Assembly: GCA_023150875.1 (NCBI GenBank)
Contig: JAKLKC010000013.1
Span: forward strand, 1 to 64,000
Source: Myxococcota bacterium
Lineage (GTDB): Bacteria; Myxococcota_A; UBA796; UBA9615; JAKLKC01
Direction of reading: 5' to 3'
DNA length: 64,000 nt
Shown: positions 32,812-50,664 of the stretch, one piece after another
Layout: each line of letters begins with the position of its first letter
Position numbering within the stretch: position 1 is the stretch's first letter
Translations under genes and position numbers: made by a program
Notes under the pieces: generated by a model
Told to the model about the DNA's origin: nothing
Databases searched by the model: none
Seen by the model: the letters and a program-made list of their open reading frames with translations, nothing else

Positions 32812-33381
32812 GGGGGGATCCTCAGGGATGGGGTAGATGGGGACGGGCCGGATCCGCGTGGCCCCGAACGAGGGCGGCATCGGGGAGCGCCCGCACCGCG
32901 GGCACGAGGGTCCCGAAACACCTTGGGCCCCAAGAGCCGCCCCCCTCCTCCAAGACAACGGACGGGCCTGTCGGACAGCGGATGCCGCCCTTCGGGGGCG
33001 TCGGGGCGGCGTTCGGGGGGTCGCGCGGTTCCGTCATCGTCGGGGCGGGGGTCCGGGAGGCCGGGGGTCCGGCCATCGCCCGGGGCCGGGGTAAGCTGTT
33101 GACATAACTCGGATTCCTTGTCCACGCCCGGCGAACTGCGGCCCGCGCGGTACCTGCTCGGAGCCCGTCCGACACCCGGCCCGGGGGCTGCCCGGTCTCT
33201 GTCCTGGACCGTCCCCCGCTGTCCTGGAAGCGGCCCGGGCCGGCTGCCAGAGTCCTGCCCGTCCACGACGCGCACCGCCTCGGCGGACCGGGTCCACCTC
33301 CCCGCCGCGGCGTCCCCTCACCTCCGCTGGCTCCGGCCAGGGTGGCACACGTCTGCCCACGGCAGACCGGAGACTCCTTCT
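32812..33381. other. Intergenic region, 570 bp, no supported gene
   Basis: Frames here are low-complexity Arg/Gly/Pro and unconvincing. A less GC-rich patch at 33090-33118 contains TTGACATAACTC, which could be a -35 element, but I see no good -10 after it. The region separates the leftward recombinase from the rightward 33.4-37.8 kb genes and may hold the promoters of both. Confidence 0.45.
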
Positions 33382-34714: not shown

Positions 34715-37700
34715 ATGGACACCTGCGCGCCCGTGTCCCCGGCCGGGCGCGCGTGGCTGGCCTCCGAGCCCGCCGCCCGCTGCCTGCGCCCGTTCCTCGA
34801 CTGGATCACCGCTCGCCACGCCGGCCTGGACGGCATCACCGAAGTCCGCGTCATCCGCCGGGGGCCGGACCGGGGGATCTGGTCCGGATACTTCGGTCCC
34901 GGCGACGTGGACGCCCTGGTCGAGGCCCTGGCGCCGACCTTGCCGCGCCCGCGATCCACGATCCCCGGCGGCGACCACCCCCGGGACGGGGAGGCCAACT
35001 TCTACTTCTCGATGCAGGCGGTGGACCCCTCGTTCGCCGAGGGGGGCCGGGGCCGCCTCCACCGGGTGCGCACCACCACGCGCGACCGGGACATCCGCGC
35101 CTACACCCTGTTCGCCGTGGACGTGGACCCCGAGCGGAACCCCAAGGACTCGTCGGCCACGGACGCCGAGAAGGCCGAGGCGCGGGCCGTCGCCGAGCGG
35201 GTGCAGGGGTGGTTGAAGGAGCGGGGGATCGCGTCGGCGTGGGCGGACAGCGGGAACGGGTACCACCTGCTGGTCCCCACCCGGGCCTACCTGGAAGGCG
35301 ACGTCGGGCGGGCATCGGCGGATGCCCATGTGCTCCTCGACCTGCTCGACGCCCGATTTTCCACGTCGGGCGCGAAGGTGGACACCTCGATCTTCAACCC
35401 GTCGCGGATCCTGAAGCTGTACGGCACGACCGCGGTGAAGGGGGAGGCGACCACGGACCGGCCCCACCGGGTGGCCGTGGTGGACGTCGACGACCTCCCG
35501 CGGGACGTCGACCTGTTCGCCCGGCTCGGTGACGAGCTGCACTGGTTCCAGGAGGATCGGGCGGCAGGGCAGGGCCGGCGCGCCGTCTCGGCGCCGGTAC
35601 CGGCTCGGCCGCCGCCGCCGCTTCCCGAGGCGCCCTCCATCAGCCCGCCGCCGCCGGCACCGCCGTCGCCGGTCACGTCGCCCGCCGCGGCCCCGCCGAC
35701 CCCCTCGCCCGAGGCCGACTGGAAGGCGTGGCGCGCGCGTGCCCTGGCCGCCCTCGACCTGGCGGCGGTGTACGGGGACCTCCTCACGGGCCGCGCCACC
35801 GGGGCATGGCTGGAGTGCCGGGACCCCGAGTCCGAGAGCGGCGACCGGAACCCCTCGGCCGGAGTCTCCGACGGGACGGGGGAGGCCGAGCGCGGGGCCT
35901 TCCACTCCTTCCGCACCGGCCGCACCGTCAGCGTGTTCGACTTCCTCATCCGCCAGGGACGCGCTGCCGACTTCCGCTCCGCCTGCGCCCGGGTGGCGGA
36001 GCTGTCCGGGGTACCGCTCCCGGCGCCCAGGTCCCGAGCCGCCCCGGGCGTGGCGGCCTTCCGGTCCGCCTGGGACGCCGACCCCGATCCCGACGCCCGC
36101 ACCGCCCTGCTCCGGCGGACCCTGGTGGCCCTGCTCGCCCTCCCCGCCCTGGAGCGCGAGCCCGCCCTGGACGAGGTGCGTCGCCTCGCCGGCTTGGCGC
36201 CCCGCGCGTTCCGGGCCGCCCTCGCCGACGCCCGTCGCGCCGCCCGGGTGGAGCGGGCCAGCACCGAACCGGCGCCCCGCCCCGGGCTCCCGGTGGTCGA
36301 CTTCGTCCACAACCGGGACACGGTGGTGGACCTCTTCGAGGCCCTGGTCGCCGCGGTGGCCCCCGCCCGGCGCTTCTTCCGCTCCGACGGGGACCTGGTC
36401 TACGTGCGCGACGGCTTCGGCCCGGCGGGAGTGACCGACCGGACCCTTCCCGGCCTGCTGTCCGCCCACGTCGAGCTGCGGTTCCTGACCGACACCGACG
36501 ACGGGCCCGTCTTCCAGCGGTACGACGTGCTCCCCTCGGACCTGGCGCGGGCCTTCGTCGCCTCCCCCCGCGTCCTCGCGCGCCTCCCGGTGCTGTCGAT
36601 GTACGCCCGGGCCCCGCTGTTCGACCGGGCGTGGCGCTTCGTCGGCACCCCCGGCTACCACGAGCAGAGCGGCATCTACTACGACGGCCCCGAGGTGGTC
36701 CCGGGCACCGAGGTGACCCGCCTGTGCGAGGCCCTTGTCGACTTCGCCTGGAAGGATGACGCCGACTGGGTGAACTTCATGGGGGCGTTGGTGACCGCCA
36801 TCACCATGCCCCACTGGGGCCGGGGCCACCCCTTCCTCGCCATCAACGGCAACAAGCCGGGTGTGGGCAAGAGCACGCTCGCCCGGGTCCTCGGCGTCCT
36901 GGTCGAGGGCACCGAGCCCCACTCCATCTCCTTCGTCCCCGACGACGCCGAGTTCGAGAAGCAGCTCGCCACCCGCATCGAGGCCGGCGACCGCGTCCTG
37001 GTCATCGACAACGCCAAGACCTCTCGCCCCGTGGAGAGCGCCGTCCTGGAGCGGAGCATCACCGACACCCGCCTGAACTTCCGCCGCCTGGGCAGCAACA
37101 CCGCCATCAGCCGCCCCCAGAACGACGTCCTCTTCGTCCTGACGATGAACCTGACCCAGATGGGCCCGGACCTGCGCCGCCGGGCCCTCCCGGTCAACCT
37201 GGACCTGGACGCCAACGTGCGGGCGGCGATCTTCAAGGTCGGCGACCTGGTCGGCCACGTCCTGGAGCACCGCCTGGCCCTGCTTGCCGAGCTGGCGGGA
37301 ATGGTGCAGCGGTGGGTCGCCGCCGGCCGTCCCCCTTGCGAGGAACCCGCCCGCCACAGCACCAGCCAGACCTGGGCAGCGACGGTGGACGCCATCCTGC
37401 GGGGCTCGGGCTTCCGGGGGTTCCTCAGCAACTTCCAGCAGTCCGAGCACGCCTTCGACCCCCGCTACGCGGTGATGCTGGAGATCGTCGAGCAGCACCA
37501 CCACCGCCCTCCCGCCCCAGCGGCGCGATGGGTCGAACTGCTGGAGGGCGGCGCCCTCGCCGACCGCTTCACCGACAGGGGCGGCCATCCCAAGTCGCCC
37601 CGGGCGAAGGCGAACGTCGTCGCCAGCCTGTTCGCCGAGTACCTGGACACGGCATTCCCGGTCGAGGGCAAGAGCTACCGCCTCGTCCGTGAGTACCCCG

Positions 37701-37750
37701 AGGGCGCCAACCACAAGCCCACCTACCGCTTCCAGGAGGTAGTGCCGTAG
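34715..37750 (+). CDS. Multidomain primase-helicase (replication initiator type)
   Basis: The 1011-aa product has three parts. Residues about 1-290 look like an archaeo-eukaryotic primase core, with LFAVDVDPERNPKD carrying the acidic pair (about 130-143) and ADSGNGYHLLVPT (about 177-189). Residues about 335-440 look like a CHC2-type DNA-binding module without the zinc cysteines (DRNPSAGVSDGTGE, FHSFRTGRTVSVFDFLIRQG). Residues about 600-900 are an SF3/AAA-like helicase with Walker A GNKPGVGKST near 710, Walker B VLVIDNAK near 765 and NDVLFVLTMNLTQMG near 805. It is a second replication set besides the PrimPol/VapE pair, so it belongs to another element or plasmid unit. Confidence 0.85.
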   Translation: MDTCAPVSPAGRAWLASEPAARCLRPFLDWITARHAGLDGITEVRVIRRGPDRGIWSGYFGPGDVDALVEALAPTLPRPRSTIPGGDHPRDGEANFYFSMQAVDPSFAEGGRGRLHRVRTTTRDRDIRAYTLFAVDVDPERNPKDSSATDAEKAEARAVAERVQGWLKERGIASAWADSGNGYHLLVPTRAYLEGDVGRASADAHVLLDLLDARFSTSGAKVDTSIFNPSRILKLYGTTAVKGEATTDRPHRVAVVDVDDLPRDVDLFARLGDELHWFQEDRAAGQGRRAVSAPVPARPPPPLPEAPSISPPPPAPPSPVTSPAAAPPTPSPEADWKAWRARALAALDLAAVYGDLLTGRATGAWLECRDPESESGDRNPSAGVSDGTGEAERGAFHSFRTGRTVSVFDFLIRQGRAADFRSACARVAELSGVPLPAPRSRAAPGVAAFRSAWDADPDPDARTALLRRTLVALLALPALEREPALDEVRRLAGLAPRAFRAALADARRAARVERASTEPAPRPGLPVVDFVHNRDTVVDLFEALVAAVAPARRFFRSDGDLVYVRDGFGPAGVTDRTLPGLLSAHVELRFLTDTDDGPVFQRYDVLPSDLARAFVASPRVLARLPVLSMYARAPLFDRAWRFVGTPGYHEQSGIYYDGPEVVPGTEVTRLCEALVDFAWKDDADWVNFMGALVTAITMPHWGRGHPFLAINGNKPGVGKSTLARVLGVLVEGTEPHSISFVPDDAEFEKQLATRIEAGDRVLVIDNAKTSRPVESAVLERSITDTRLNFRRLGSNTAISRPQNDVLFVLTMNLTQMGPDLRRRALPVNLDLDANVRAAIFKVGDLVGHVLEHRLALLAELAGMVQRWVAAGRPPCEEPARHSTSQTWAATVDAILRGSGFRGFLSNFQQSEHAFDPRYAVMLEIVEQHHHRPPAPAARWVELLEGGALADRFTDRGGHPKSPRAKANVVASLFAEYLDTAFPVEGKSYRLVREYPEGANHKPTYRFQEVVP

Positions 37751-37783: not shown

Positions 37784-38155
37784 CTACCGCTGTCGAGCTG
37801 TCGACCCTTCGCCAGCGGCGGGACCGGCCCCTCCGGCGAGCCCCTGGGCCGGCGCCGGGCACCCCGAGGGAGGAATGGGCCTCCCTCGGGGTGTGGGGCT
37901 GGGCTGCCACGATTCCCCGCAGACCTCGCAGACCTCGGCAGACCTCGCGTTTTTCCGGGGTCGGCGCGGATTTCCCTGTCCTAGCGCACAGTTGAAGACC
38001 TCGCAGACCTCGCAGACCTCGATCCTGCCCCCCATGGCGATCTGATGATCTCGGTGCCCCGCCTCGCAGAGGCCGATCACCTCCTGCTCGGAGAGATCTC
38101 CTCGCGCGTAGAGGGCAGAGAAGAGGTCTGCGAGGTCTGCAAGGGGGTAGATCAA
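37784..38155 (-). CDS. Doubtful ORF spanning the 9-bp repeats
   Basis: The 123-aa frame starts MIYPLADLADLFSALYARGD and continues LSEQEVIGLCEAGHRDHQI, which looks protein-like. It then reads through repeats as EVCEVCEV and AEVCEVC, and finally through the perfect hairpin at 37860. The 9-bp repeat length keeps frames open on both strands, so the ORF may be only partly real. A short gene at its 5' end (about 38020-38155) cannot be excluded. Confidence 0.3.
   Translation of the reverse strand: MIYPLADLADLFSALYARGDLSEQEVIGLCEAGHRDHQIAMGGRIEVCEVCEVFNCALGQGNPRRPRKNARSAEVCEVCGESWQPSPTPRGRPIPPSGCPAPAQGLAGGAGPAAGEGSTARQR
37860..37893 (+). terminator. Perfect 14-bp hairpin after the primase-helicase gene
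   Basis: Arms CACCCCGAGGGAGG and CCTCCCTCGGGGTG pair without mismatch around the loop AATGGG, 110 bp after the primase-helicase stop. There is no U-tract. It is the strongest inverted repeat I noticed in the window and probably ends or protects the transcript; a role in plasmid-like replication or transfer is an alternative. Confidence 0.55.
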
Positions 38156-38227
38156 CCTTGCAGGACAAGGACTTACAGCAGGCAGACCTCGCCGAACCCG
38201 AGGTCTGCGGAGGTCTGCGAGGTCTGC
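37919..38227. repeat. 9-bp repeat array GCAGACCTC / GAGGTCTGC in both orientations
   Basis: Twelve units: three at 37919-37946, three at 37994-38020 (the first as GAAGACCTC), then inverted units at 38123-38140 (two), one direct at 38182, and inverted units at 38200-38227 (three). Direct and inverted groups could pair into long stems. Units are spaced by exactly 9 bp within groups, so reading frames pass through as EVCEVC or LADLADL. The array lies directly after a primase-helicase gene. Confidence 0.75.
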
Positions 38228-38382: not shown

Positions 38383-41300
38383 GTGCCCCACACCACGTCC
38401 CAGCCGGCCCCGCCGCGCCATGGTCCCCCCGACTGGCAGACCCGACTCGGGTTGTCCGACCGACCTGCGTCGAGCTTCATCCGCTCCCTCGACGAGCTGG
38501 ACCATCTCTCGCCCCCATTTCCGGCGGCCCACTTGGTCAGGCGGGCCTGGGAGGCAATGCAGCTTGACGGTGCCCTCTGCTCGGATGGAGCACCTCTGGC
38601 CTACTTCCGAGTGGGGACTCTCTCGGCCGAAGACACGTTTGAACTGCATCGGCGGGCCTGGAATCAGGGCGTGGCCCCTCTGCTGATCCTGGTAGACTCC
38701 ACAGATGTCCGGGTGCTCTCGACGGTTGCAGCCCCGCGGAAGGACTTCCAGCAGCTGACCCGGAACAGCGTGGTCCGAACCCTGAGCTTGGTTGCGGATG
38801 CACTGGAGCTGGCCGACCTTCCTGACGCCATCGTGTCGGGTGCGTTCTTCCAGGTCCATCGGGAACGGTTCGACCACACGGATAGAGTCGACCGTTACCT
38901 CGTGCGGAACCTGCTGGCCGCCGGTTCCAGGCTCGTGGCTGCCGGCGGGATCGACCTGCGCCAGGCACACCTGCTCCTGGCTCAGGTCATCTTTGCGTGC
39001 TATCTCGAAGACCGTGAAGTCATCGGCCCGGATTGGTTCGCCGCCCTGGAGATCCCGGGTGTGCGCGAACTTCGCCACGTCTTCGAGCACCAGGGCGACG
39101 CGTGTAGTGCCCTCCAGGCCGTGCTCGGGCAGTTGCATCGGGACTTCAACGGGGACGTCTTCGGTGCCGAAACCGCCGAACACCTTGGCTTAGGCCACCT
39201 GGTAGTCCTGAGTGAGCTGCTTCGGGGTGATTCCCTCGACACACAGCAATTGTCGCTGGGGTTCTGGCCGTACGATTTCCGGGTTATCCCCATCGAGACG
39301 CTCAGCGTCGTCTATGAAGAATTCCTCGCCGCCGAGGACCCGGGTAGCCAGCGCGAATCGGGGGCCTACTACACGCCACGCCACGTCGCCGAATTGCTGC
39401 TCGACGTAGGGACGAGCACAGCGGTCTCGACAGAGCATCGCTATCTTGACCCGGCATGCGGGTCCGGCGTCTTCCTGGTTGCGCTGTTCCATCGCCTCGC
39501 GGAATCATGGAGCCGAGCCAACCCACACGCGACTGCGATGGAGCGGGCGGTCGCGCTGCGCCAAGTTCTCACTCGGTGCCTGTTCGGGGTCGATCAGAGT
39601 GAGACGGCCTGCCGGATAACCGCGCTCGGACTCTATCTTGCGTGGCTGGACGCACTTGATCCCAGGGACATCCAGCAGCTTCAGTGTTCCGGGGCGATGC
39701 TGCCCAGGTTGCTGATGAGACCTGGGGAGGCGGGAGGCAACATCTTTCCGGGGGAGTTCTTCGAAGCCAGAGAGCTCCCCAACGACTTCGATGTGGTCAT
39801 CGGAAACCCCCCCTGGGGCACTGCCGCCAAAGGAGGTCCAGCCGAGCGGTGGTGGCTAGGGGAAGGCCTGGAAGTTCCGAGGCGCCAGATCGCTTGCGCC
39901 TTCATCTTGAAGGCGGTGCGCCACATCAGGCCCTCGGGCCGGGTTTCCCTGGTACTGCCCGCTGGGATTCTGTTGAACCACCAGGGTCCGGCACTCAAAT
40001 TTGCTCGGGCGTGGATGAGCGCCGTCACGATCGAGCGGGTCGTGCATCTTGCCGACTTCTGCTTCCTGCTCTTCGAGAACGCAGATCGCCCGGCATCAAT
40101 CGTCTGCTTCCGCCCCGTCGAGCCGCCGACAGGGCACCGAGTCGAGGTGATCTCGCCCCAGGTTACCGCGGAGGCCCTATGTGCGGATCGGGTGGTCATC
40201 GGCAGCGACGATGTCCGTCGGGTTTCGATGGCAACGGTCCTCCCGGTTGAGGGAGACAAGGGTCTGGAGCCGCAGCGCGCGTGGAAGGTGTCCATGCGGG
40301 CCACGGGTCGAGATCGGCGCCTTCTTGACAGGCTCCATGGATACCCGTCGCTCGCTGCCTTCATTGCGGGGAGAAAGGGATGGTTGTGGGGCGAAGGGTT
40401 TAACCCGGGTGGCAAGGGTCGGCGTCTGGATCAGTCCATCCTGTCTGAGCTGCCTCACCGGCTTCCGGGCCAGTTGCAGGCTCACTTGGTGGAGGCGCTG
40501 GATCCCGCCGCGATGCCTCCCACGACAGCGCCAGCGTTCATGTGCCGCGCCGAGCTGTTCGCGGCGCCTCATGTGCTGCTTCCTCACGGTGCTCCGAGGA
40601 GAAACGACCGGATCCGCGCCGGCTTCTGCTCGGTCGCGTGCACATTCACGCATACGACTCGGGCCATCTGCGGTCCTAAGCATGACTCCGATCTCCTGCG
40701 ACTCTTAGCGTGTGTGCTGGCATCACCGCTTGCCCGTTACCTCCTCTTCCATACCTCGGCGAATTTCGGTGTTGAGCGAGCCAAGATCCATCTCGACGAG
40801 TACGGCCGATTTCCGTTTCCCGCCCCCGACACCGAGGGACGCGAGGGGGTTTTCAGGCAGATCGCAGATGCCCACCGACGCCTTGAAGAACTGCTCCGGC
40901 ACCCAATGGTGCACCCCGATGTGGCTCTGGCCAGGACGTCCATCGATGAATTGGTCTACAAGTACTTTGACATCGACGCCCAGGAGCGCGTGCTGGTGGA
41001 AGACGCTTGCACCGTGCTGATACCAAGTGCCACGCCGACCAGGGGGACGGACCAGATTCCGGCACTCGATGTCCCTTCAGAGGGGCAGAGGAGGAGCTAC
41101 TGCGAAGTGCTAGCAACCACGCTCACCGGATGGGCTTCTGACAAGTGGCGATTTGACGCGAGATCCTTCGCGTCCCTTCAGGCGGGACTGGGATTGGTGA
41201 TTCTTGAGCGCGTCGATCGGACAGCACCGGCCACGACGAACGGGATGGAGTCTGCTGAGTTGCGGGTGATCCTGAACCGGTTGCGTCGGTTGACAACCAC

Positions 41301-41463
41301 CGTCGGGAAGGCGACGCAGGTCGAGCGCGGATTGAAGATCTTCGACGACGGGCACCTATACATGGTAAAGCCCCTGCGGCGGCGATCCTGGTTGCCGTCC
41401 CTCGCGCTTGCGGATGCCGACGAAGTTGCAGGTGCCATCCTCGGCGCTCAGGAGAGGACGTGA
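38383..41463 (+). CDS. Class I DNA N6-adenine methyltransferase of restriction-modification type
   Basis: The 1026-aa product has SAM motif I LDPACGSGVFLVALFHRLAE near residue 356 and catalytic NPPWGTAAKG near 474. An N-terminal helical region contains YEEFLAAEDPGSQRESGAYYTPRHVAELLL, typical of Eco57I/PglX-like enzymes. The C-terminal third contains a specificity-type segment (HLDEYGRFPFPAPDTEGREG, AHRRLEELLRHPM) as in type IIG enzymes. No clear nuclease motif is visible inside it, and the next gene supplies one. Start is GTG 38383. The base composition is much less GC-rich than the flanks, a sign of recent acquisition. It probably marks host DNA in a two-gene defence system. Confidence 0.88.
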   Translation: MPHTTSQPAPPRHGPPDWQTRLGLSDRPASSFIRSLDELDHLSPPFPAAHLVRRAWEAMQLDGALCSDGAPLAYFRVGTLSAEDTFELHRRAWNQGVAPLLILVDSTDVRVLSTVAAPRKDFQQLTRNSVVRTLSLVADALELADLPDAIVSGAFFQVHRERFDHTDRVDRYLVRNLLAAGSRLVAAGGIDLRQAHLLLAQVIFACYLEDREVIGPDWFAALEIPGVRELRHVFEHQGDACSALQAVLGQLHRDFNGDVFGAETAEHLGLGHLVVLSELLRGDSLDTQQLSLGFWPYDFRVIPIETLSVVYEEFLAAEDPGSQRESGAYYTPRHVAELLLDVGTSTAVSTEHRYLDPACGSGVFLVALFHRLAESWSRANPHATAMERAVALRQVLTRCLFGVDQSETACRITALGLYLAWLDALDPRDIQQLQCSGAMLPRLLMRPGEAGGNIFPGEFFEARELPNDFDVVIGNPPWGTAAKGGPAERWWLGEGLEVPRRQIACAFILKAVRHIRPSGRVSLVLPAGILLNHQGPALKFARAWMSAVTIERVVHLADFCFLLFENADRPASIVCFRPVEPPTGHRVEVISPQVTAEALCADRVVIGSDDVRRVSMATVLPVEGDKGLEPQRAWKVSMRATGRDRRLLDRLHGYPSLAAFIAGRKGWLWGEGFNPGGKGRRLDQSILSELPHRLPGQLQAHLVEALDPAAMPPTTAPAFMCRAELFAAPHVLLPHGAPRRNDRIRAGFCSVACTFTHTTRAICGPKHDSDLLRLLACVLASPLARYLLFHTSANFGVERAKIHLDEYGRFPFPAPDTEGREGVFRQIADAHRRLEELLRHPMVHPDVALARTSIDELVYKYFDIDAQERVLVEDACTVLIPSATPTRGTDQIPALDVPSEGQRRSYCEVLATTLTGWASDKWRFDARSFASLQAGLGLVILERVDRTAPATTNGMESAELRVILNRLRRLTTTVGKATQVERGLKIFDDGHLYMVKPLRRRSWLPSLALADADEVAGAILGAQERT

Positions 41464-42137
41464 TCCAAGGCGACCTGTCCTTGTGGGCGGGTACGTTTCC
41501 GCCAAGCCTGATCGAAGAAGTGCTCGCCGTGTTGGTCTCCTGTTGGCCGAACCTTCTCCCGTTATCCCCAGTGACGAAGGAAGACCCCATCACAAATCGC
41601 CTCGTCGCGGCCATGCGGGCCGAGAAGAGGATTCGCAGGTCGATGTTTCGGATAGACCCGCAGTATCAGGTTATGGAACTGGAAACCGGCGAAGTCGAGG
41701 GGCGCATCGACATCTGCGTTTCGGCAGGTTTCGATGAAGAAGTGTTCTTTGCCCTGGAGTGCAAGCGGCTGAACGTCCAGGGGGCTGACGGCAAGATTGA
41801 CGTTCAGGCCAGCAAGTACGTTCAGGGGGGGATGGTGCGGTTCGTCACAGGCCCTTACGCTCGCGCACAGCGTCACGGCGGCATGGTCGGTTATGTCATG
41901 GACGGAGACGTCCAGCACGCCATGGCGGTCGTCGAGAAGGCCATAGGGGATCATCGGGTCGCCTTGTGTATCCCAACACCTGATTCCTGGGGACCCTCCC
42001 CCTATTGCGAGATCCATCCGGAATCGAAGGAATCGCTGCATCAGCCAAACGGTCGCGATCTTCGGCTCCATCATCTGTTCCTTCGGGTCCCGGCCCCATC
42101 CGCGCATGCTTGCCTCGGCAGTCCTGACCCAGAGTGA
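41460..42137 (+). CDS. PD-(D/E)XK-like nuclease, partner of the methyltransferase
   Basis: The 225-aa product starts at GTG 41460, overlapping the methyltransferase stop. The segment EVEGRIDICVSAGFDEEVFF followed by ALECKRLN gives D-(about 12-15)-ExK, the core of PD-(D/E)XK nucleases, near residues 78-106. An N-terminal block has ITNRLVAAMRAEKRIRR. The C-terminal part (SKYVQGGMVRFVTGPYARAQ) resembles restriction-type nucleases seen beside Eco57I-like methyltransferases. It probably cuts unmodified DNA. The motif is visible; recognition site and cleavage are inferred. Confidence 0.75.
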   Translation: MIQGDLSLWAGTFPPSLIEEVLAVLVSCWPNLLPLSPVTKEDPITNRLVAAMRAEKRIRRSMFRIDPQYQVMELETGEVEGRIDICVSAGFDEEVFFALECKRLNVQGADGKIDVQASKYVQGGMVRFVTGPYARAQRHGGMVGYVMDGDVQHAMAVVEKAIGDHRVALCIPTPDSWGPSPYCEIHPESKESLHQPNGRDLRLHHLFLRVPAPSAHACLGSPDPE

Positions 42138-42222
42138 GGGGGCTGCCCTGGGGGTAGCCGTCGAGGACGGTTGAGGAGGACAAGCTGTAGAACCTCTACT
42201 CTGGGCGACGGAATGGACCGTC

Positions 42223-43176
42223 TCATCCAGTCGGCAAGGACGCCCGTCGCCTTGCCAGGAACGCCTCCATCGCAGAGGATAGCGGGGGCTCTGGGCGAAA
42301 CCCCACGAAGACTTGCTCGAAGAAACCCCACGCCCGACTCAGGTTCCCACAGCGCCGCGCGAAGGGATGAAACCAGACCCATGATAGTCCCCACTCGCTC
42401 TGTTGGGACGGCAAGCCCGCCCCGGCTCGGTCTACGAAGAGGCATGCGCCGACGACGGTGCTGGCGTCGCCTCGGTTGACCCAAAGGAAGGCTTCTGAAT
42501 CGCTGCCGTGGTCGTCGCGCGCGTACTGGACGAAGTCGAAGTGAAACTCTCTTTGGAAGTACATGGCGCACTGCTCGACCGCACGGCGGTAGGTTGCCGC
42601 GGACCTGGCTGTGACCCAGACCAATGCAGCCGGCATGCCGGGCAGGAACGGCTGTAGGCGGCTTGCGTCAGACCGTGGGTGAGAAGGAGGGGGATCTCCG
42701 CTGAGTCGCACCCTTGGTGCGTCGATGCACCAGCGTTGCGCCATCAGTGATTCCCACCGGTCGTCGTCGGATGGCGAGTGGCGCTTGGGTCTGTCGACGC
42801 TTGGGGTCCGGACCTCATGACCGCCATCCTCGCGGGCCAGTTGCCGCATGGTGGCGGATCGCCACGAATAGTCCCTTTGCGCCACTGGATCCCGAATCTT
42901 CTTGACATCGCTCCAAGAGCCAGGCTTCCCCCAAGCGTCGACTACCACCCAGGATCGGGACTCTAGGTAGCTCACTGCGTCCCGCATCTGCTGGAGTTCC
43001 ACCGCGTACTCGACCTCGCGCTCCACTCCTACCGGTGGCTGCCACCAGTAACCGCTGCCGATGGGTGTCCACCCGGAAACGGTCAAGTAGGCGGTCCGGT
43101 CTTGTCGCCGAAGGGTATGGGCAAAGCCGAGGCGGACGAGTTCGGCATGAGCGGCGGCTGGAAGGAGGCGGCGCAT
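42223..43176 (-). CDS. Hypothetical protein with GNAT-like C-terminal domain
   Basis: The 317-aa product starts at ATG 43176 (MRRLLPAAAHAELVRLGFAH). An N-terminal part (TLRRQDRTAYLTVSGWTP, EVEYAVELQQMRDAVSYLES) precedes a C-terminal block, YRRAVEQCAMYFQREFHFDF, AFLWVNRGDASTVVGACLFV, EWGLSWVWFHPFARRCG, whose order fits a GNAT acetyltransferase-like fold. It is convergent with the R-M pair, shares their lower GC content, and probably arrived with them. Substrate unknown; link to the defence pair is by position only. Confidence 0.6.
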   Translation of the reverse strand: MRRLLPAAAHAELVRLGFAHTLRRQDRTAYLTVSGWTPIGSGYWWQPPVGVEREVEYAVELQQMRDAVSYLESRSWVVVDAWGKPGSWSDVKKIRDPVAQRDYSWRSATMRQLAREDGGHEVRTPSVDRPKRHSPSDDDRWESLMAQRWCIDAPRVRLSGDPPPSHPRSDASRLQPFLPGMPAALVWVTARSAATYRRAVEQCAMYFQREFHFDFVQYARDDHGSDSEAFLWVNRGDASTVVGACLFVDRAGAGLPSQQSEWGLSWVWFHPFARRCGNLSRAWGFFEQVFVGFRPEPPLSSAMEAFLARRRASLPTG

Positions 43177-43674: not shown

Positions 43675-44607
43675 TCACGGACACCCCCCATTCGCCTGAT
43701 CGCAGGACTCCGCCGCATGCTCGCCCTCGACCTGGAGTGTGGCGTGCCCGATGCCGAACCGGTCCGCGAGGGCGGAGGTGATCGCGCGGAGCTGCTCGTC
43801 CGTGAGCCGGCCCTGGGCGACCAGGTGCGCGGTCAGGGCGGTGCGACGGGTCCCGAGGGGCCAGATGTGGAGGTCGTGGACCGACACGATGCCCGGGAGG
43901 CTGCGCAGGTAGGCGGACACGGCGTCGGGGTCGACGTGCTCGGGGACGACGTCCATGGCCAGGTCGAAGGCACCTCGCAGGACCGGCCAGGTCTGGACCA
44001 GGACCGCCGCGGAGATGAGCAGGCTGGTGGCGGGGTCGATCCAGGAGTGACCGGTCAGCCGCATTGCGAGGCCCGCCCCGACGACTCCCAGGGAGACCGC
44101 CGCGTCGCTCGCGAGGTGCAGGAAGGCGGCTCGGACGTTGAGGTCGTGCTTCCGCCCGACGGCGAACAGGGCCGCGCTCAGCCCGTTGACGGCGACCCCC
44201 ACGGCGGCGACGGCCATCACCGTCCCCCCGGCGACCTCCCCGACGGTGCCCAAGCGGCGCACCGATTCCCAGGCGATACCCCCTACTGCCACCAGGACCA
44301 GGACGGCGTTCGCCAGGGCGGCGAGGATGGTGGCCCGTTGATAGCCGTAGGTGCGGCGGACCGTGCGGGGAGCACGGGCGAAGTGCGCCGCGACGCCCGC
44401 CAGGGCGACCCCGGCGACGTCCCCGAGGTTGTGCCCGGCGTCGGCGAGTAGGGCCATGGAGCCCGCCCACACGCCCGCGAACACCTCGACCGCCACGAAG
44501 GTCAGGTTGAGGACGACCGCCCACGCGAAAGCCCGTCCGCTGGCGCTCTCGGACTCCCCCTGCACGAGGTGTCCGTGCCCGTGCTCGTGCGAGTGGTCGT
44601 GCGCCAT
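43675..44607 (-). CDS. czcD: Cation diffusion facilitator, CzcD type (Zn/Co/Cd exporter)
   Basis: The 310-aa product begins with a His-rich cytoplasmic tail (MAHDHSHEHGHGH); start ATG 44607 was chosen over 44685 for this. Six transmembrane helices follow. Metal-site motifs are ALLADAGHNLGD in TM2 and HLASDAAVSLG in TM5 (HxxxD type), and the C-terminal domain has IVSVHDLHIWPLGTRRTALTAH. It exchanges cytoplasmic Zn2+ or related ions for protons. It lies at the downstream end of the czc operon on the same strand and probably shares its induction by metals. Confidence 0.92.
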   Translation of the reverse strand: MAHDHSHEHGHGHLVQGESESASGRAFAWAVVLNLTFVAVEVFAGVWAGSMALLADAGHNLGDVAGVALAGVAAHFARAPRTVRRTYGYQRATILAALANAVLVLVAVGGIAWESVRRLGTVGEVAGGTVMAVAAVGVAVNGLSAALFAVGRKHDLNVRAAFLHLASDAAVSLGVVGAGLAMRLTGHSWIDPATSLLISAAVLVQTWPVLRGAFDLAMDVVPEHVDPDAVSAYLRSLPGIVSVHDLHIWPLGTRRTALTAHLVAQGRLTDEQLRAITSALADRFGIGHATLQVEGEHAAESCDQANGGCP

Positions 44608-44703
44608 CACGCCTCGTTCCCTTCCGCGCTCAGCACGGGCACCCGGATCCACCCGCCGTCGGGCGCGTCGCCCGAGGTGAGCCAAGCCCGGGGCCCGCCC
44701 CCA

Positions 44704-45048
44704 TCAAAGCGCCGCCTCACCGCGGTCCCCCGTGCGGATGCGGAGCGCGTCTTCAACAGGGAGGACGAACACCTTCCCGTCACCGACCCTGCCTGTGCGG
44801 GCGTGCTGGTGGACGGCCTGGAGCACCGCACCGACCTGCCCGTCGGGCACGACCAGCTCCAGCTTTACACGATCCACGGCGTGCACCGAGCCCGGGGCGC
44901 GGACCTCGCCCAAGCGGTCCGGTCCCCGGCGGCGCCCGTATCCGCGACAGTCCGTCACGGTGATCGCCCCCACCCCAGGCAGCGCCTGGAGGGCGTCGAC
45001 CACGTCACTTAGCCGCGACGGCTGAAGTATGGCGAGCACCAGCTTCAT
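44704..45048 (-). CDS. P-II-like small signalling protein of metal efflux operons
   Basis: The 114-aa product starts MKLVLAILQPSRLSDVVDAL and has GVGAITVTDCRGYGRRRG, VKLELVVPDGQVGAVLQAV and GRVGDGKVFVLPVEDALRIR, the ferredoxin-like fold and T/B-loop blocks of the GlnB family. P-II-like members linked with heavy-metal RND pumps are thought to sense ligand state or metal. The uridylylation-type Tyr of GlnB is replaced by the GYGRRRG loop. It overlaps the CzcA 3' end by 44 bp, so it is made from the same message. Confidence 0.85.
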   Translation of the reverse strand: MKLVLAILQPSRLSDVVDALQALPGVGAITVTDCRGYGRRRGPDRLGEVRAPGSVHAVDRVKLELVVPDGQVGAVLQAVHQHARTGRVGDGKVFVLPVEDALRIRTGDRGEAAL

Positions 45049-48000
45049 CTTCTCCTCCGTCGGCGGGCTCGCCCCGGCGGGCGTTGCCTCGGTCGAACCA
45101 CGGGTACAGGGTCGGAAGGACCAGGAGGGTCAGGAGGGTGGCGGTCACAAGGCCCCCGATGACCACGGTGGCGAGCGGCTTCTGCACCTCGGCTCCAGCG
45201 CCGTGGGCCAGCGCCATGGGGATGAAGCCCAGCGACGCCACCAGCGCCGTGGTCAGCACGGGACGGAGCCGCAGGTGCGCGGCGTCATGGGCGGCCCGCT
45301 CCGGGGACAGCCCGTCCTCGCGCAGGTGGCGGATGGTGGAGACCAGGACCAGCCCGTTGAGCACCGCCACGCCGAACAGGGCGATGAAGCCCACCCCCGC
45401 CGAGATGCTCAAGGGCATGCCCCGGACCCCGAGGGCCAGCACTCCCCCCGTGACCGCGAAGGGGATGTTGAGGTAGATGAGCAACGCGGGACGGAAGGCA
45501 CCGAAGGTGGTGTAGAGCAGCAGGAAGATGATGCCCAGGGTCAGGGGGACCACCAGCCCGAGGCGGCGGGACGCGGCGGTGAGGTTCTCGAACTGCCCGC
45601 CCCAATCGATCCAGTAGCCAGCGGGTAGCTCGACCTGACTCCCAATGGCCGCCCGGGCCTCGTCCACGAACCCCTTGAGGTCCCGGCCCCGCACGTTCGC
45701 CTCGATGGTGAGGCGCCGCTGGGCGTTCTCCCGGCTCACCTGCGCCGGGCCTTCCTCGACGTCGATGCGGGCGAGCTGGGACAGGGGGACGAGCTGGCCG
45801 CCTGGGCCCTGGATGCGGATGCCGGCGATCTGCTCGACGCTCTGGCGGGCATCGGGCGCGATCCGGACTTGGAGGGCGAAGCGCTTCTGCCCTTCCAGCA
45901 CCGTCCCGACCTGCTTGCCGCCGACCGCCTCCACCGCCTCCAGGACCTCGCTGGCGTTGATGCCGTAGCGGGCGATGGCGTCCCGGTCGATCCGCACCCG
46001 AGCCACGGGGAGACCTGCCACCTGCTCCGCCTTGACGTCCGCGGCTCCCGGGACCTTGCCCAGCGCGGCGACCAGGCGGTCCCCGAGGCGCTTGAGGGTG
46101 TCCAGGTCCTCGCCGTAGAGCTTCAGCGCCACATCGGAACGGACCCCCGCGATCAGCTCGCTCACCCGCAGCTCGATCGGCTGAGAGTATGAGAACAGGC
46201 TCCCGGGGACCTCGCGTTTCAGCGCGTCGTCGAAGGCGGAGATCAGCCCCTCCCGGTCTCCGGCGGTCTTCCACTCCTCCCGGGGCTTGAGCATCACGAA
46301 GACGTCGCTGATCTCCACGCCCATGGGGTCGGTGGCGATCTCGGCGCGGCCGGTCTTGGAGACCACCGTGGTGACCTCGGGGAACCGCTTGAGCACCCGC
46401 TCGACCAGCCCCGACTGGCGGACCGACTCCTCCAGGGAGACCGACGGGACCCGCCACGTCTGGAGCGCGATGGCGCCCTCGTCCAGCCGGGGGACGAACT
46501 CCGCACCCAGGAAGGGGATCACCGCCAGGCTCCCCACCAGGCAGGCCACTGCAATCCCCACCGTCCGCCTGCGGTGCCCGAGGCACCAGGCAAGGGCGGG
46601 CTCGTAGACCTTCCGCGCCCCCCGGACGAGGAAGCTCTCCTCCTCGCGGGCCCCGAGCGGCAGCAGGAGCGAGGCCAGGGCCGGCACGAAGGTCAGGGCC
46701 AGCACCAGCGCCCCCGCCAGGGCGCAGATCACGGTGATGGCCATCGGCCGGAACATCTTCCCCTCGATCCCGGTGAGGGCGAGGATGGGGACGTAGACCA
46801 CGGTGATGATGAGGATCCCGAAGACGGTGGCGCCCCGCATCTCCACCGCCGAGCGGTACACCACCTCGTCCCGCTCGGAGCGGTCCAGGGGACGGTGGAG
46901 GGCGTGGCCCTGCTCCGCGATCCGGCGCATCGCGTTCTCGACGATGATCACTGCGCCGTCGACGATGAGGCCGAAGTCGATGGCGCCGAGGGACATCAGG
47001 TTGCCCGACACGCCGAACGCCCTCATGCCCAGGAACGCGAACAGCATCGACAGAGGGATGGCGCTGGCCACCACGACGCCCGCGCGCAGGTTCCGTAGTG
47101 TGAGGAACAAGACGGCGATCACCAGCACCCCGCCCTCGATGAGGTTGCGGGCGACGGTGTGGATCGTCTTCCAGACCAGCTCGGTGCGGTCGTAGAAGGG
47201 GTCGATGGTGACCCCCTTGGGGAGGGCGGGACCGATCTGCGCCACGGCCTCCTTCACCCCTTCGACCACCTCCCGGGAGTTGGCGCCCATGAGCATCATC
47301 ACGATGCCGGTGACCGCCTCGCCCCGACCGTCCCGGGTGACCGCGCCCTGGCGGACCATGGGGGCGAACGCCACCTTCCCCACGTCCCGGACATAGACCG
47401 GGGTGCCCTCGCCCGACGTCGCCAGCACGATGTTCCCGATGTCGTCGAGGTCCTCGACCAGCCCCTCGCCGCGTACCAGCACCTGCTCCTGGGCGCGGGC
47501 GATGTATGCGCCGCCGGTGTTGGCGTTGTTGGCCGCGAGGGCGTCGAACACCTGGTCGAGGGACAGCCGGTAGGCCCCGAGGCGGGCCGGATCCACCTGG
47601 ACCTCGTAGGTCTTCAGCTCCCCCCCGAAGCTGTTGACCTCGATGACCCCCGGCACCTGGCGGAGCCGCGGTGCCACCTGCCACTCCAGGATGCTCCTCA
47701 GGTCCATGGGCGAGTACCCTTCGCCCCTCACCTCGAACTGGTAGATCTCCCCGAGACCCGTGGAGATGGGGCCCATCTCGGGGGACCCGTACCCCTCCGG
47801 GATCTCCTCCTTCGCCGTCGTCAGCCGCTCCTGGACGAGTTGGCGGGCGAAGTAGATGTCGGTGCCGTCCTCGAAGACGACGGTGACGACGGACAGCCCG
47901 AACTTGGAGACGGACCGCACCTCCTCCAGGCCCGGCAGGCCGGTCATGGCCATCTCGACGGGGAAGGTGATGAAGCGCTCCACCTCCACCGGTCCCAAGG

Positions 48001-48163
48001 CCGGGCTGGAGGTGAGGACCTGCACCTGGACGTTGGTGACGTCGGGCACGGCGTCGATGGGCAGTTGGCGCAGCGCCTGGAGCCCCGCGCCGACGAGGAG
48101 CAGGGCCAGGGCCAGGACCAGGAAGCGCTGCTCGATGGAGAACCGGATCAGGCGGTCGAACAT
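45005..48163 (-). CDS. czcA: CzcA-type heavy-metal RND efflux pump
   Basis: The 1052-aa inner-membrane proton/metal antiporter of a tripartite pump. It has the N-terminal helix (FSIEQRFLVLALALLLVGAG), porter domains, and the proton-relay signature GAIDFGLIVDGAVIIVENAM around residues 395-415. The DFG/DGA/VEN residues are those of the Zn/Co/Cd class (HME1) rather than the copper/silver class. The length matches family members. It works with the adaptor (48176) and outer-membrane channel (49429). Substrate class is inferred from the signature. Confidence 0.95.
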   Translation of the reverse strand: MFDRLIRFSIEQRFLVLALALLLVGAGLQALRQLPIDAVPDVTNVQVQVLTSSPALGPVEVERFITFPVEMAMTGLPGLEEVRSVSKFGLSVVTVVFEDGTDIYFARQLVQERLTTAKEEIPEGYGSPEMGPISTGLGEIYQFEVRGEGYSPMDLRSILEWQVAPRLRQVPGVIEVNSFGGELKTYEVQVDPARLGAYRLSLDQVFDALAANNANTGGAYIARAQEQVLVRGEGLVEDLDDIGNIVLATSGEGTPVYVRDVGKVAFAPMVRQGAVTRDGRGEAVTGIVMMLMGANSREVVEGVKEAVAQIGPALPKGVTIDPFYDRTELVWKTIHTVARNLIEGGVLVIAVLFLTLRNLRAGVVVASAIPLSMLFAFLGMRAFGVSGNLMSLGAIDFGLIVDGAVIIVENAMRRIAEQGHALHRPLDRSERDEVVYRSAVEMRGATVFGILIITVVYVPILALTGIEGKMFRPMAITVICALAGALVLALTFVPALASLLLPLGAREEESFLVRGARKVYEPALAWCLGHRRRTVGIAVACLVGSLAVIPFLGAEFVPRLDEGAIALQTWRVPSVSLEESVRQSGLVERVLKRFPEVTTVVSKTGRAEIATDPMGVEISDVFVMLKPREEWKTAGDREGLISAFDDALKREVPGSLFSYSQPIELRVSELIAGVRSDVALKLYGEDLDTLKRLGDRLVAALGKVPGAADVKAEQVAGLPVARVRIDRDAIARYGINASEVLEAVEAVGGKQVGTVLEGQKRFALQVRIAPDARQSVEQIAGIRIQGPGGQLVPLSQLARIDVEEGPAQVSRENAQRRLTIEANVRGRDLKGFVDEARAAIGSQVELPAGYWIDWGGQFENLTAASRRLGLVVPLTLGIIFLLLYTTFGAFRPALLIYLNIPFAVTGGVLALGVRGMPLSISAGVGFIALFGVAVLNGLVLVSTIRHLREDGLSPERAAHDAAHLRLRPVLTTALVASLGFIPMALAHGAGAEVQKPLATVVIGGLVTATLLTLLVLPTLYPWFDRGNARRGEPADGGEDEAGARHTSAVAAK

Positions 48164-48175
48164 GGGCCGGCCCTC

Positions 48176-49432
48176 CTAGTGGTCGTGGTCGCCCATGCTC
48201 TCCTTGGAGAGCTCGGACTTCAGGATGAAGGCGCCCCGGGCCACCACGGTCTCCCCGCCGGTGAGCCCGATCCGCACCTCCGCCTCGGAGGCGGTAGTGG
48301 CGCCGACCTCGACCTCCACGGGTCGGAAGCGGTTCGGGCCCACGGCTACGAAGACCACCGCTTCCCCGCCGACCGCCTGGACCGCCTCGCGAGGGATCAC
48401 TACCGCGGACGGTGCCCCCGTCGGAGCTTCGGGCGCGCCCCCGACCGCGATCTCGGCGGTGGCGAACATGCCCGGCTTGAGGGCGCGCTCGGGGTTCCCC
48501 ACCGCCACCCGGACCTCGACGGTGCGGCTCTGCTCCTCGACCACGTCGCCTACGTAGTCGACCTTCCCTTCGAAGCGGGCTTCGGGCAGGGAGCCGACGG
48601 TCAACGCCACCGGCTGCCCCGGCCGCACCCGGGCGACGTCCGACTCGGCGATCTCCAGGATGGCCCACAGTCGGGACAGGTCTCCCACGGTGAAGAGGTG
48701 GGAAGCGCCCTCCACCGACTCCCCGAGGGTGGCGTCCACCTGTACGACCGTCCCGGTGAGCGGCGAACGCAGCGGGAACTGGGAGCTGAAGTGCTCGTCG
48801 GCCTTGAGCGCCTTCACCTCGGCCTCGGACAGGCCAAGGGCGTGCAGGCGGGCATCCGCGGTATCGACGGCGGCCTGGGCCTCGGCCAGGTCAGCCTCCG
48901 CCTCCCGGACGTCCCGGGCGGCGCTGATCCCCTTGTCGACGAGGCCCCTCGCCCGGTCGAGGTTCGTCTCGGCGACCTGGGCCCGCTTGGCGGCGGCCAG
49001 GTACTCGGCCCGGGCCTGGCCCAGCTCCGGGCTCTCCATGAGGGCCAGCACCTGGCCCCGGCGCACGTCCTGGCCCAGGCGGACCGGGATCTCGGCGACC
49101 CGGCCGGCGACCCGCGCGCCCACCTTGACCACCCCGTCCTGGGTGAACGCGAACCGCGCCGGCACGGTGAGCGTGCCCGACAGCGGCCGGCGCTCCGCGG
49201 TCACCAGGCGGATCTCCGCCGAGCGCATGGCTTCGGGGGTGAGCGCCACCTCTTCCCGCTCGTGCCCCTCTCCGTGTGCTTCCGGGTGCCCTGCGTCTTC
49301 GCCGGGGCCGGCGTGGGGCTCGCCCTTCTCCCCGGCGTGATCGGCTCCGGGGGGGAGATGGCCCTCCGTTCCCGCCCCGCAGCCCGCGAGCGCGACGACG
49401 AGGCCCAGAAGACCGATTTGTGCGCGCGTCAT
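48176..49432 (-). CDS. czcB: CzcB-type periplasmic adaptor lipoprotein
   Basis: The 418-aa product has a lipoprotein signal (MTRAQIGLLGLVVALAGCGA). A His/Glu-rich N-terminal stretch (GADHAGEKGEPHAGPG, HPEAHGEGHERE) could chelate metal. Membrane-fusion domains follow: GARVAGRVAEIPVRLGQDV (biotinyl-lipoyl half), a helical hairpin (LAEAQAAVDTADARLHALG), and RPGQPVALTVGSLPEARFEG (beta barrel). It links the CzcA pump to the outer-membrane channel. ATGA overlap with the upstream channel gene. Confidence 0.93.
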   Translation of the reverse strand: MTRAQIGLLGLVVALAGCGAGTEGHLPPGADHAGEKGEPHAGPGEDAGHPEAHGEGHEREEVALTPEAMRSAEIRLVTAERRPLSGTLTVPARFAFTQDGVVKVGARVAGRVAEIPVRLGQDVRRGQVLALMESPELGQARAEYLAAAKRAQVAETNLDRARGLVDKGISAARDVREAEADLAEAQAAVDTADARLHALGLSEAEVKALKADEHFSSQFPLRSPLTGTVVQVDATLGESVEGASHLFTVGDLSRLWAILEIAESDVARVRPGQPVALTVGSLPEARFEGKVDYVGDVVEEQSRTVEVRVAVGNPERALKPGMFATAEIAVGGAPEAPTGAPSAVVIPREAVQAVGGEAVVFVAVGPNRFRPVEVEVGATTASEAEVRIGLTGGETVVARGAFILKSELSKESMGDHDH

Positions 49433-50664
49433 TCCGTCCTCCCGATCGCGCGGTCCAGCTCGGCCTGCGCGCGGTTCAGCTCCTCCAGGGCATCGATCCA
49501 GGCTCGCTGGCCTTCCAGCGTCTCGCGGCGGACGAGCAGAAGCTGCAAGAAGTCGATCTCCCCCGCCCGGTAGGCCTCGTTGACGATTCGCAGGTTCTCC
49601 TCCAGGGCCGAGAGCACCTCGTCCCCGAACGCCTGCGCGGCGGCCACTGCCGCCTGGTACCGGGCCAGGGCGAGCCGCACCTCCTGCTGCACGCGGCGCT
49701 CCGCCGTGGCGAGGGCCAGCTCCGCTTGGGTGGCCCGGGCGCGGGCCTCTCCCCGGCCCGTCTGGTTCCGATCGAACAGGGGGAGGGGCAGGGTCAGCCC
49801 CGCCTGCACCGTGGTGGCGCCCTCCTCCTGTCCATAGGTGACCCCGACCGTGGGGTTGGGCGCCCCCTCGGCCGCCGCGAGTCGCCGGCCCGCCAGCGCC
49901 GCGTCCCTCTCCGCCCGGGCGGCCGCGAGGTCGGCGCGGGTGGTGGCCTGGGCGAGCAGGTCCTCCAGGCGGGGCGCGGGGGCGCCCGGGGCCGGAGCCA
50001 GGTCGCCTGCCGTATTCAGGTCCTCGTCCGGGGGTAGGGCCAGCAGGAGCTTCAGCTCGGCCAGGGCCGCCGCCTGCTCGCGCTGGGTGTGGGCCATGTC
50101 CCGGGCGGAACGACCGACTTCGGCGCGAGCCGTGTTGACCTCGATGCGCGCCGCCTCTCCCGCCCTGTACCGCTCCTCTGCGGCCCGGAGCGCATCCTCC
50201 GCCAGCTCGCGGGCCTCGGCCGCGAGCCGCACCCTCTGCTCCGCGGCCTGCAAGGCTCCAAAGGCGGCTCGGACCTGCGCCGAGAGGTCGGCCCGTCGCG
50301 CCGCCAGCCTCGCTTCGGCGGCGGAGAGCGCGGCCCGGGCGGCGGCGGCGCGGTGCACCGGCTGGCCCGCCACCTCAAGCTCCTGCGAGACCCCCACCTC
50401 GAAGTCCAGGGTCCGGCCCTCGGGGCTCCGCCGGGGTCCGACCGCTCCCTCAGCCTGGGGGTTGAAGCGGAAGGGGATCCGGGCGGCGTTGAGGGTGGCC
50501 CTCGCGGCGTCGACCTCGGCCCTGAGGGACTGGATCTCGGGGTTTTCTTCCAGTGCCCGTGCGACTGCCTCGCCGCGCGTCAGCTCGCGCGCGGAGGCAG
50601 GTACGGGCGAAGCAGCGGCGATCGCCCATAGGGCGAGCCCCGCGCGGATCGCTCCACGCAGCAT
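49429..50664 (-). CDS. czcC: CzcC/TolC-family outer membrane channel
   Basis: The 411-aa product has a Sec signal (LALWAIAAASPVPASAREL) and two TolC-type repeat halves, each with long amphipathic helices (NPEIQSLRAEVDAARATL; RADLAAARAERDAALAGR) and FDRNQTGRGEARARATQAEL. It forms the exit duct of the pump. First gene of the czcCBA set; transcription probably starts just upstream or at the 50754 gene. Confidence 0.93.
   Translation of the reverse strand: MLRGAIRAGLALWAIAAASPVPASARELTRGEAVARALEENPEIQSLRAEVDAARATLNAARIPFRFNPQAEGAVGPRRSPEGRTLDFEVGVSQELEVAGQPVHRAAAARAALSAAEARLAARRADLSAQVRAAFGALQAAEQRVRLAAEARELAEDALRAAEERYRAGEAARIEVNTARAEVGRSARDMAHTQREQAAALAELKLLLALPPDEDLNTAGDLAPAPGAPAPRLEDLLAQATTRADLAAARAERDAALAGRRLAAAEGAPNPTVGVTYGQEEGATTVQAGLTLPLPLFDRNQTGRGEARARATQAELALATAERRVQQEVRLALARYQAAVAAAQAFGDEVLSALEENLRIVNEAYRAGEIDFLQLLLVRRETLEGQRAWIDALEELNRAQAELDRAIGRTE

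What the first reader, a model, noticed from the sequence alone, without database searches (positions are those of the whole stretch)
38383..43176. Lower-GC three-gene island: Eco57I/PglX-like methyltransferase, PD-(D/E)XK-like nuclease, GNAT-like protein
The first two genes overlap and form a plausible restriction-modification pair; the third has no known link to restriction but shares the composition. It may be a third component or a modifier of the system.
Basis: partly seen in the sequence, partly recalled or inferred. Interest (0 to 1): 0.52.

Follow-up and report, generated by a model that had tools for sequence, protein, structure and literature searches.

The report
Two-gene restriction system plus unrelated neighbour
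A methyltransferase gene and a small, unnamed DNA-cutting gene form a conserved two-gene bacterial defence module in which the methyltransferase's own cutting domain appears to be dead and the neighbouring gene supplies the blade; the third gene is a chance neighbour.

Summary
In detail: a lower-GC stretch (63.4% against 72.7% for the rest of the window) with a gamma-type N6-adenine methyltransferase (38383-41463, +), an overlapping small gene (41460-42137, +) and a convergent GNAT-like gene (42223-43176, -). Genes 1 and 2 are a conserved module: of 86 nuclease loci, 83 have the methyltransferase within 60 nt upstream, same strand. The nuclease has a predicted PD-(D/E)XK fold and a conserved core (E100, K102 in 92 of 92 loci), yet matches no Pfam, NCBIfam or PADLOC family convincingly. 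The methyltransferase begins with a domain resembling type IIG nuclease domains but without conserved catalytic residues. Best reading: a restriction-modification enzyme of type IIG descent with a dead in-cis nuclease domain and a separate PD-(D/E)XK cutting subunit. Gene 3 is not a component: its family is absent from 80 of 80 pair-bearing genomes or plasmids searched (control 4 of 4); it is a relative of ESCO-type zinc-finger/GNAT proteins without the finger. The module's recurring third gene is an upstream helix-turn-helix regulator (52 of 70 loci), missing here. No activity has been shown; cutting, and dependence of the nuclease on the methyltransferase, are inferred.

The parts
38383..41463 (+). 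Gene 1: 1026-aa gamma-type N6-adenine DNA methyltransferase with a C-terminal region that includes the presumed target-recognition part
   Evidence: Pfam N6_Mtase and Eco57I; PADLOC type IIG model PDLC03623 E 4.4e-78 over residues 148-1015
38401..38862 (+). Residues 7-160 of gene 1: domain with the fold of type IIG/HsdR nuclease domains but no conserved D...(D/E)xK, read as a dead nuclease domain
   Evidence: AlphaFold model pLDDT 86.8; VIA-align: BpuSI Z 8.1, DrdV 7.1, HsdR of EcoR124I 6.7; no conserved triad in 74 sequences
38887..39366 (+). Residues 169-328 of gene 1: helical region resembling HsdM
   Evidence: 2okc (HsdM-type M protein) Z 10.4, 136 residues aligned
39448..39468 (+). Motif I (DPACGSG), SAM binding
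   Evidence: D356, C359, G360, S361 and G362 present in 69 of 69 homologues; motif role as described in PMC3874165
39805..39816 (+). Motif IV (NPPW), catalytic
   Evidence: N475 and P477 in 69 of 69, P476 and W478 in 68 of 69; motif role from PMC3874165
41460..42137 (+). Gene 2: 225-aa PD-(D/E)XK nuclease, proposed restriction subunit
   Evidence: Model pLDDT 88.9; closest solved folds OkrAI Z 8.3, BglII 8.1, BamHI 7.4
41580..41582 (+). Glu41 of the nuclease core
   Evidence: E in 90 of 92 loci, 2 gaps
41709..41711 (+). Asp84 of the nuclease core
   Evidence: D in 91 of 92 loci, 1 gap
41757..41765 (+). E100-C-K102, the ExK of the nuclease core
   Evidence: E100 and K102 in 92 of 92 loci
42223..43176 (-). 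Gene 3: GNAT-like protein, convergent; neighbour, not part of the system
   Evidence: C-terminal 120 aa 32-40% identical to zinc-finger/GNAT proteins of plasmids; relatives hit zf-C2H2_3 (ESCO) and Acetyltransf_1, gene 3 itself does not; zinc finger not preserved; no co-occurrence with the pair

Best explanation
Genes 1 and 2 are a two-subunit restriction-modification system of type IIG ancestry. Gene 1 reads a DNA site with its C-terminal region and methylates adenine there. Its N-terminal nuclease-like domain has lost the active site and probably serves as a structural or docking part. Gene 2, a separate 225-aa PD-(D/E)XK nuclease, is the cutting subunit, brought by gene 1 to unmethylated sites on incoming DNA. 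In most relatives a small helix-turn-helix regulator upstream probably times expression; the window copy lacks it. Gene 3 is a horizontally acquired neighbour with its own, unknown acetyltransferase-type role. Shown by computation: gene pairing, intact nuclease core, folds, absence of a catalytic signature in the N-domain, absence of gene 3 elsewhere. Inferred: methylation, cutting, physical contact, and dependence of gene 2 on gene 1.
For: Pairing: methyltransferase on the same strand within 60 nt upstream in 83 of 86 nuclease loci (50 overlapping). The three exceptions are L090 and L091 (open frames overlap when starts are not trimmed) and L080 (none found). Distant methyltransferase relatives on plasmids also carry the same small partner (L094, L095, L096, L097, L100). 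Core: E41 90/92, D84 91/92, E100 92/92, K102 92/92. [quoted passage not shown] 7 of the 8 best VIA-align rows are the restriction enzymes OkrAI, BglII, BamHI or BstYI, the eighth is NucC. N-domain: fold like BpuSI, DrdV and HsdR nuclease domains, matched by type IIG models in 53 of 53 members, but no conserved D...ExK. Pairwise divergence of nuclease and of every methyltransferase domain is correlated at 0.95-0.97 over 2701 pairs, as for genes inherited together. Dependence of gene 2: loci with damaged methyltransferase keep an intact nuclease core: internal deletion in L055 and L063, only the C-terminal half left in L101.
Against: No activity, motif or interaction is known. The N-domain assignment rests on a predicted model with Z 6-8 and no Foldseek E-value below 0.001; the nuclease model too has no Foldseek E below 0.001. 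The nuclease resembles BamHI/BglII-type enzymes, which recognise their own sites (recalled), so it could act alone. Damaged methyltransferases may be recent decay or assembly error. The nuclease and the recognition region diverge in step, which does not tell whether one or both recognise the site.
Confidence: 0.62

Rival explanations
1. Conventional type II system: gene 2 is an independent, dimeric BamHI/BglII-like enzyme that recognises the same site as the methyltransferase and needs no partner.
For: Size (225 aa) and closest folds are OkrAI, BglII and BamHI.
Against: The methyltransferase keeps a large N-terminal nuclease-like domain and HsdM-like helical part, unneeded for a plain modification enzyme. 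Loci with deleted methyltransferase cores keep an intact nuclease core, which a free-standing enzyme would make lethal if expressed.
Confidence: 0.25
2. Gene 1 is a self-sufficient type IIG enzyme and gene 2 is an accessory or regulatory protein.
For: PADLOC type IIG models match gene 1 well.
Against: No conserved D...ExK in the N-domain: 6 of 74 sequences have a loose match, in scattered places. Gene 2, by contrast, has an almost invariant core.
Confidence: 0.06
3. Three-component system in which the GNAT-like gene modifies the pair or the DNA.
For: Shared low GC and adjacency in this window.
Against: Gene family absent from 85 of 85 other pair loci and from 80 of 80 pair-bearing genomes or records; nuclease absent from 8 of 8 GNAT-bearing plasmids tested; gene 3 is convergent.
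Confidence: 0.04
4. The pair is a decayed or silent remnant in this genome.
For: No sigma-70-type promoter match upstream and no upstream regulator gene, unlike 52 of 70 loci.
Against: Both frames are open and full length, with motifs I and IV and the nuclease core intact. The promoter scan covers one promoter type only.
Confidence: 0.1

Closest known systems
Type IIG (IIC) restriction-modification enzymes, e.g. BpuSI, DrdV, MmeI, Eco57I
   Same: Gamma-type methyltransferase of about 1000 aa with N-terminal nuclease-fold domain, helical connector and C-terminal region; PADLOC type IIG models match 53 of 53 members
   Different: N-domain shows no conserved active site; a separate PD-(D/E)XK protein is encoded directly downstream. 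The 17 organisations in Table 4 of PMC3874165 all keep R joined to M (section 36, part 1 read)
Type I systems (HsdR, HsdM, HsdS)
   Same: Separate restriction subunit; HsdM-like helical region
   Different: Restriction subunit is 225 aa, too small for a motor domain; no separate S gene between the two
Type IIP enzymes BamHI, OkrAI, BglII, BstYI
   Same: Closest solved folds of gene 2, Z 6.8-8.3
   Different: Sequence similarity not detectable in the PDB sequence search; partner is a type IIG-like rather than a plain methyltransferase
Haloferax HVO_A0006 with HVO_A0237
   Same: Proposed split of a type IIG enzyme into nuclease and methyltransferase parts (PMC4389544, abstract and passages)
   Different: There the nuclease is the broken-off N-terminus and the methyltransferase lacks it; here the N-domain is still present and a different nuclease is added
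PglX / BREX and MAD2 methyltransferases
   Same: Catalytic-domain similarity
   Different: Scores far below the curated cut-offs (42.7 bits against 400; 55.2 against 720)

Membership tests
[quoted passage not shown]
   Predicted elements H41-54, E64-72, E79-88, E97-104, H117-130, E139-146; D84 and E100-x-K102
PD-(D/E)XK nuclease superfamily (gene 2) | Nuclease activity | not testable with these tools
   Needs protein
Gamma-class N6-adenine methyltransferase (gene 1) | Motif I before motif IV NPP(F/Y/W), C-terminal recognition region | tested here: met
   Motifs at residues 356-362 and 475-478; Pfam N6_Mtase. That the C-terminal region does the recognition is inferred
Type IIG restriction enzyme (gene 1 alone) | N-terminal nuclease-fold domain fused to the methyltransferase | tested here: met
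   Fold resembles BpuSI and DrdV domains; confidence moderate
Type IIG restriction enzyme (gene 1 alone) | Intact PD-(D/E)XK active site in that domain | tested here: not met
   No conserved D...ExK in 74 sequences
Type I restriction system | HsdR with helicase motor | tested here: not met
   Partner is 225 aa, one nuclease domain
Type I restriction system | Separate HsdS | tested here: not met
   No gene lies between genes 1 and 2, which overlap; gene 1 has about 450 residues after the catalytic domain
BREX (PglX) | PglX-level similarity | tested here: not met
   42.7 bits against a cut-off of 400
BREX (PglX) | BREX gene set next to it | tested here: inconclusive
   No BREX gene seen among the neighbours examined, but not all neighbours were scanned
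ESCO-type zinc-finger acetyltransferase (gene 3) | C2H2 zinc finger | tested here: not met
   Relatives have CxxC...HxxxH; gene 3 lacks it in the same region
ESCO-type zinc-finger acetyltransferase (gene 3) | GNAT domain with RRxG acetyl-CoA-binding stretch | tested here: met
   ARRCG aligned with RRxG in relatives; homology E 2e-15. Motif role recalled

The most novel reading that the evidence does not exclude
A widespread, undescribed class of restriction-modification enzyme in which a type IIG enzyme's own nuclease domain died and became a docking platform, while a different, BamHI/BglII-like PD-(D/E)XK protein was recruited in trans as the cutter, so that methylation and cutting share one recognition region but sit in two genes. 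Databases list such proteins as single-chain type IIG enzymes and leave the real cutter as a hypothetical protein.
Probability: 0.42. Interest if true: 0.6.

Novelty: new variant of a known kind. Interest (0 to 1): 0.42.

Why it matters
If right, a common bacterial defence module has been half-annotated: the methyltransferase is filed as a one-piece restriction enzyme, and its real cutting subunit carries no family name. Naming it would correct defence-system searches, give many new enzymes whose cutting and methylating parts can be handled separately, and offer a test of how nuclease domains are lost and replaced in restriction enzymes.

Tried and rejected
Considered and rejected: gene 3 as a component; gene 1 as PglX/BREX or MAD2; an att-like direct repeat bounding the island (longest shared repeat 15 nt, not above expectation as I judge it; no shuffle was run). 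Family searches gave nothing convincing for gene 2: single hits among 67 members in PADLOC and NCBIfam and one or two in Pfam, including one PDDEXK_9 hit at E 0.012 and one REase_II at 0.0091. PDB sequence search of the nuclease profile gave only chance-level hits. The viral collection gave no relative of gene 3 and one of the nuclease. Attempt to tell a shared from a separate recognition region by domain divergence: no contrast. Search for a single-chain relative with a live N-domain and no partner: type IIG model PDLC03603 in 235 same-phylum genomes gave 4 hits, of which three (G000, G077, G240) carry the nuclease partner and one (G019) ends at the contig edge. Two truncated methyltransferases without an annotated partner were seen (L098, L099). 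Literature: searches listed no description of this pair that I recognised from titles and the starts of abstracts; read in part: PMC3874165 (passages and sections 31 and 36, part 1), PMC4081073 (passages), PMC4389544 (abstract and passages), PMC5587805 (abstract and outline). REBASE could not be searched. Two searches on bacterial ESCO-like proteins gave nothing.

Rows dropped: L001 and L088 are copies of the window and were left out of counts. Structure alignments used 66 of 71 loci for the nuclease (A6; dropped L042, L063, L069, L072, L080 as duplicates or by the start/N-content filters) and 52 of 58 full-length methyltransferases (A7; dropped L029, L031, L033, L046, L069, L072, chosen by hand as near-duplicates without a measured cut-off). 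The 80 records leave out L042 and L069 as duplicates.
Full report
What is there. The window holds three genes at the stated place. Gene 1 (38383-41463, +, 1026 aa) and gene 2 (41460-42137, +, 225 aa) overlap by 4 nt; gene 3 (42223-43176, -) is convergent. The stretch is 63.4% GC against 72.7% (sd 2.8) elsewhere in the window.

Gene 1. Pfam gives N6_Mtase (E 3.6e-20) and Eco57I (2.4e-13). PADLOC type IIG model PDLC03623 matches residues 148-1015 at E 4.4e-78, while PglX and MAD2 models in NCBIfam match far below their cut-offs. Motif I (DPACGSG) and motif IV (NPPW) are conserved in 69 homologues. A model of residues 1-330 (pLDDT 86.8) splits in two: residues 7-160 resemble the nuclease domains of type IIG BpuSI (Z 8.1, 129 residues, rmsd 4.2), DrdV (7.1) and HsdR of EcoR124I (6.7); residues 169-328 resemble HsdM (2okc, Z 10.4). 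These Z-scores are middling and Foldseek alone gave no E below 0.001, but most of the better rows are nucleases of one superfamily (classified from memory of the names). In 74 aligned homologues the N-domain has no conserved D...(D/E)xK; 6 of 74 contain a loose match, at scattered places. I read it as a dead nuclease domain.

Gene 2. No convincing family hit alone or over 67 members. [quoted passage not shown] Closest solved folds: OkrAI (Z 8.3), BglII (8.1), BamHI (7.4), BstYI (6.8). Across 92 loci the core is E41 90/92 and D84 91/92 (the rest gaps), E100 92/92 and K102 92/92; Y120, M142 and H205 are also in 92 of 92.

Pairing. One scan of species genomes gave 71 loci, from alpha-, gamma- and other Proteobacteria, Planctomycetes, Acidobacteria, Gemmatimonadetes, Dadabacteria and Rhodothermaceae by record title. 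With plasmid and same-phylum loci, 86 nuclease loci were tested: 83 have the methyltransferase within 60 nt upstream on the same strand, 50 of them overlapping. L090 and L091 overlap if starts are not trimmed; L080 has none. Remote methyltransferases on plasmids carry the same partner (L094-L097, L100). Nuclease divergence follows each methyltransferase domain at r 0.95-0.97. In the window's phylum the nuclease is rare: 4 of 282 genomes.

Does the nuclease need its partner? Not shown. Suggestive: L055 has lost methyltransferase residues of about 354-872, L063 has a frameshift and a gap at 743-812, and L101 keeps only the C-terminal half (aligned from 534); all three keep the nuclease core. L010 and L019 have frame breaks and L015 is split in two frames. 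These may instead be decay, assembly error or silent copies.

The usual third gene. Of 70 loci with a placed methyltransferase start, 39 have a MerR-like, 10 an XRE-like and 3 a winged-helix-like small gene just upstream; 18, the window among them, have none recognised. The three winged-helix loci (L017, L018, L020) are among the four best matches to the window's nuclease. The assignment of the commonest 158-aa type to MerR is by eye, from its resemblance to annotated MerR neighbours; Pfam did not score it.

Gene 3. Its last 120 aa are 32-40% identical to plasmid proteins annotated GNAT, C2H2 zinc finger or hypothetical. Four of five family members hit the ESCO zinc finger and four of five Acetyltransf_1; gene 3 itself hits neither, and the finger is not preserved. 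Its family is absent near 85 of 85 other pair loci, absent from 80 of 80 pair-bearing genomes or plasmids, and found in 4 of 4 controls. Only the window genome has it among 282 same-phylum genomes. The nuclease is absent from 8 of 8 GNAT plasmids. A bond special to this one lineage cannot be excluded.

What it is called. Type IIG enzymes are defined by an N-terminal cleavage domain joined to the methyltransferase (PMC3874165, section 36 part 1); its Table 4 lists no case with a separate cutter. The nearest idea in print that I saw is the split Haloferax pair (PMC4389544), which differs as stated. Gene 1 therefore fails one defining feature of type IIG, though the system may well work like one. 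Six literature searches found no description; REBASE was not available, and it may hold such pairs.

Verdict. The restriction-modification pair is sound; the mechanism (dead cis domain, trans cutter guided by the methyltransferase) is the best reading but unproven; gene 3 is a bystander.

Noticed in passing
window 37919-38227: Cluster of GAGGTCTGCGAGGTCTGC units, three on the minus strand (one with a mismatch) then two on the plus strand, between a primase-like gene and gene 1. These are the only five sites in the 6.9-Mb assembly. Could be operator or origin repeats.
   Followed up: partly
window 34715-37750: 1011-aa protein with weak DUF5906 and primase-polymerase hits (E 0.027 and 0.17), next to the repeats; hints at a mobile element that replicates.
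   Followed up: no
window 29475-31178 (+) and 30787-32958 (-): Two large serine recombinases on opposite strands whose open frames overlap by about 390 nt.
   Followed up: no
window 1835-6910 (-): 1692-aa protein joining Eco57I/N6-methylase and SNF2/helicase domains; a second methylase in the window.
   Followed up: no
window 43675-50664: Cation-efflux (CDF) gene, with genes beside it that look like an RND metal-efflux set (by eye), next to the island.
   Followed up: no
L101 3578-5643: Pseudosulfitobacter plasmid with only the C-terminal half of the methyltransferase but an intact nuclease core; the plasmid search counts 24 Pseudosulfitobacter records with some methyltransferase match.
   Followed up: partly
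L103 5197-11862: A C2H2/GNAT relative of gene 3 lies beside ATP-binding, Z1-domain and PD-(D/E)XK genes; 126 of 136 plasmid records with the family are Pseudomonas.
   Followed up: no
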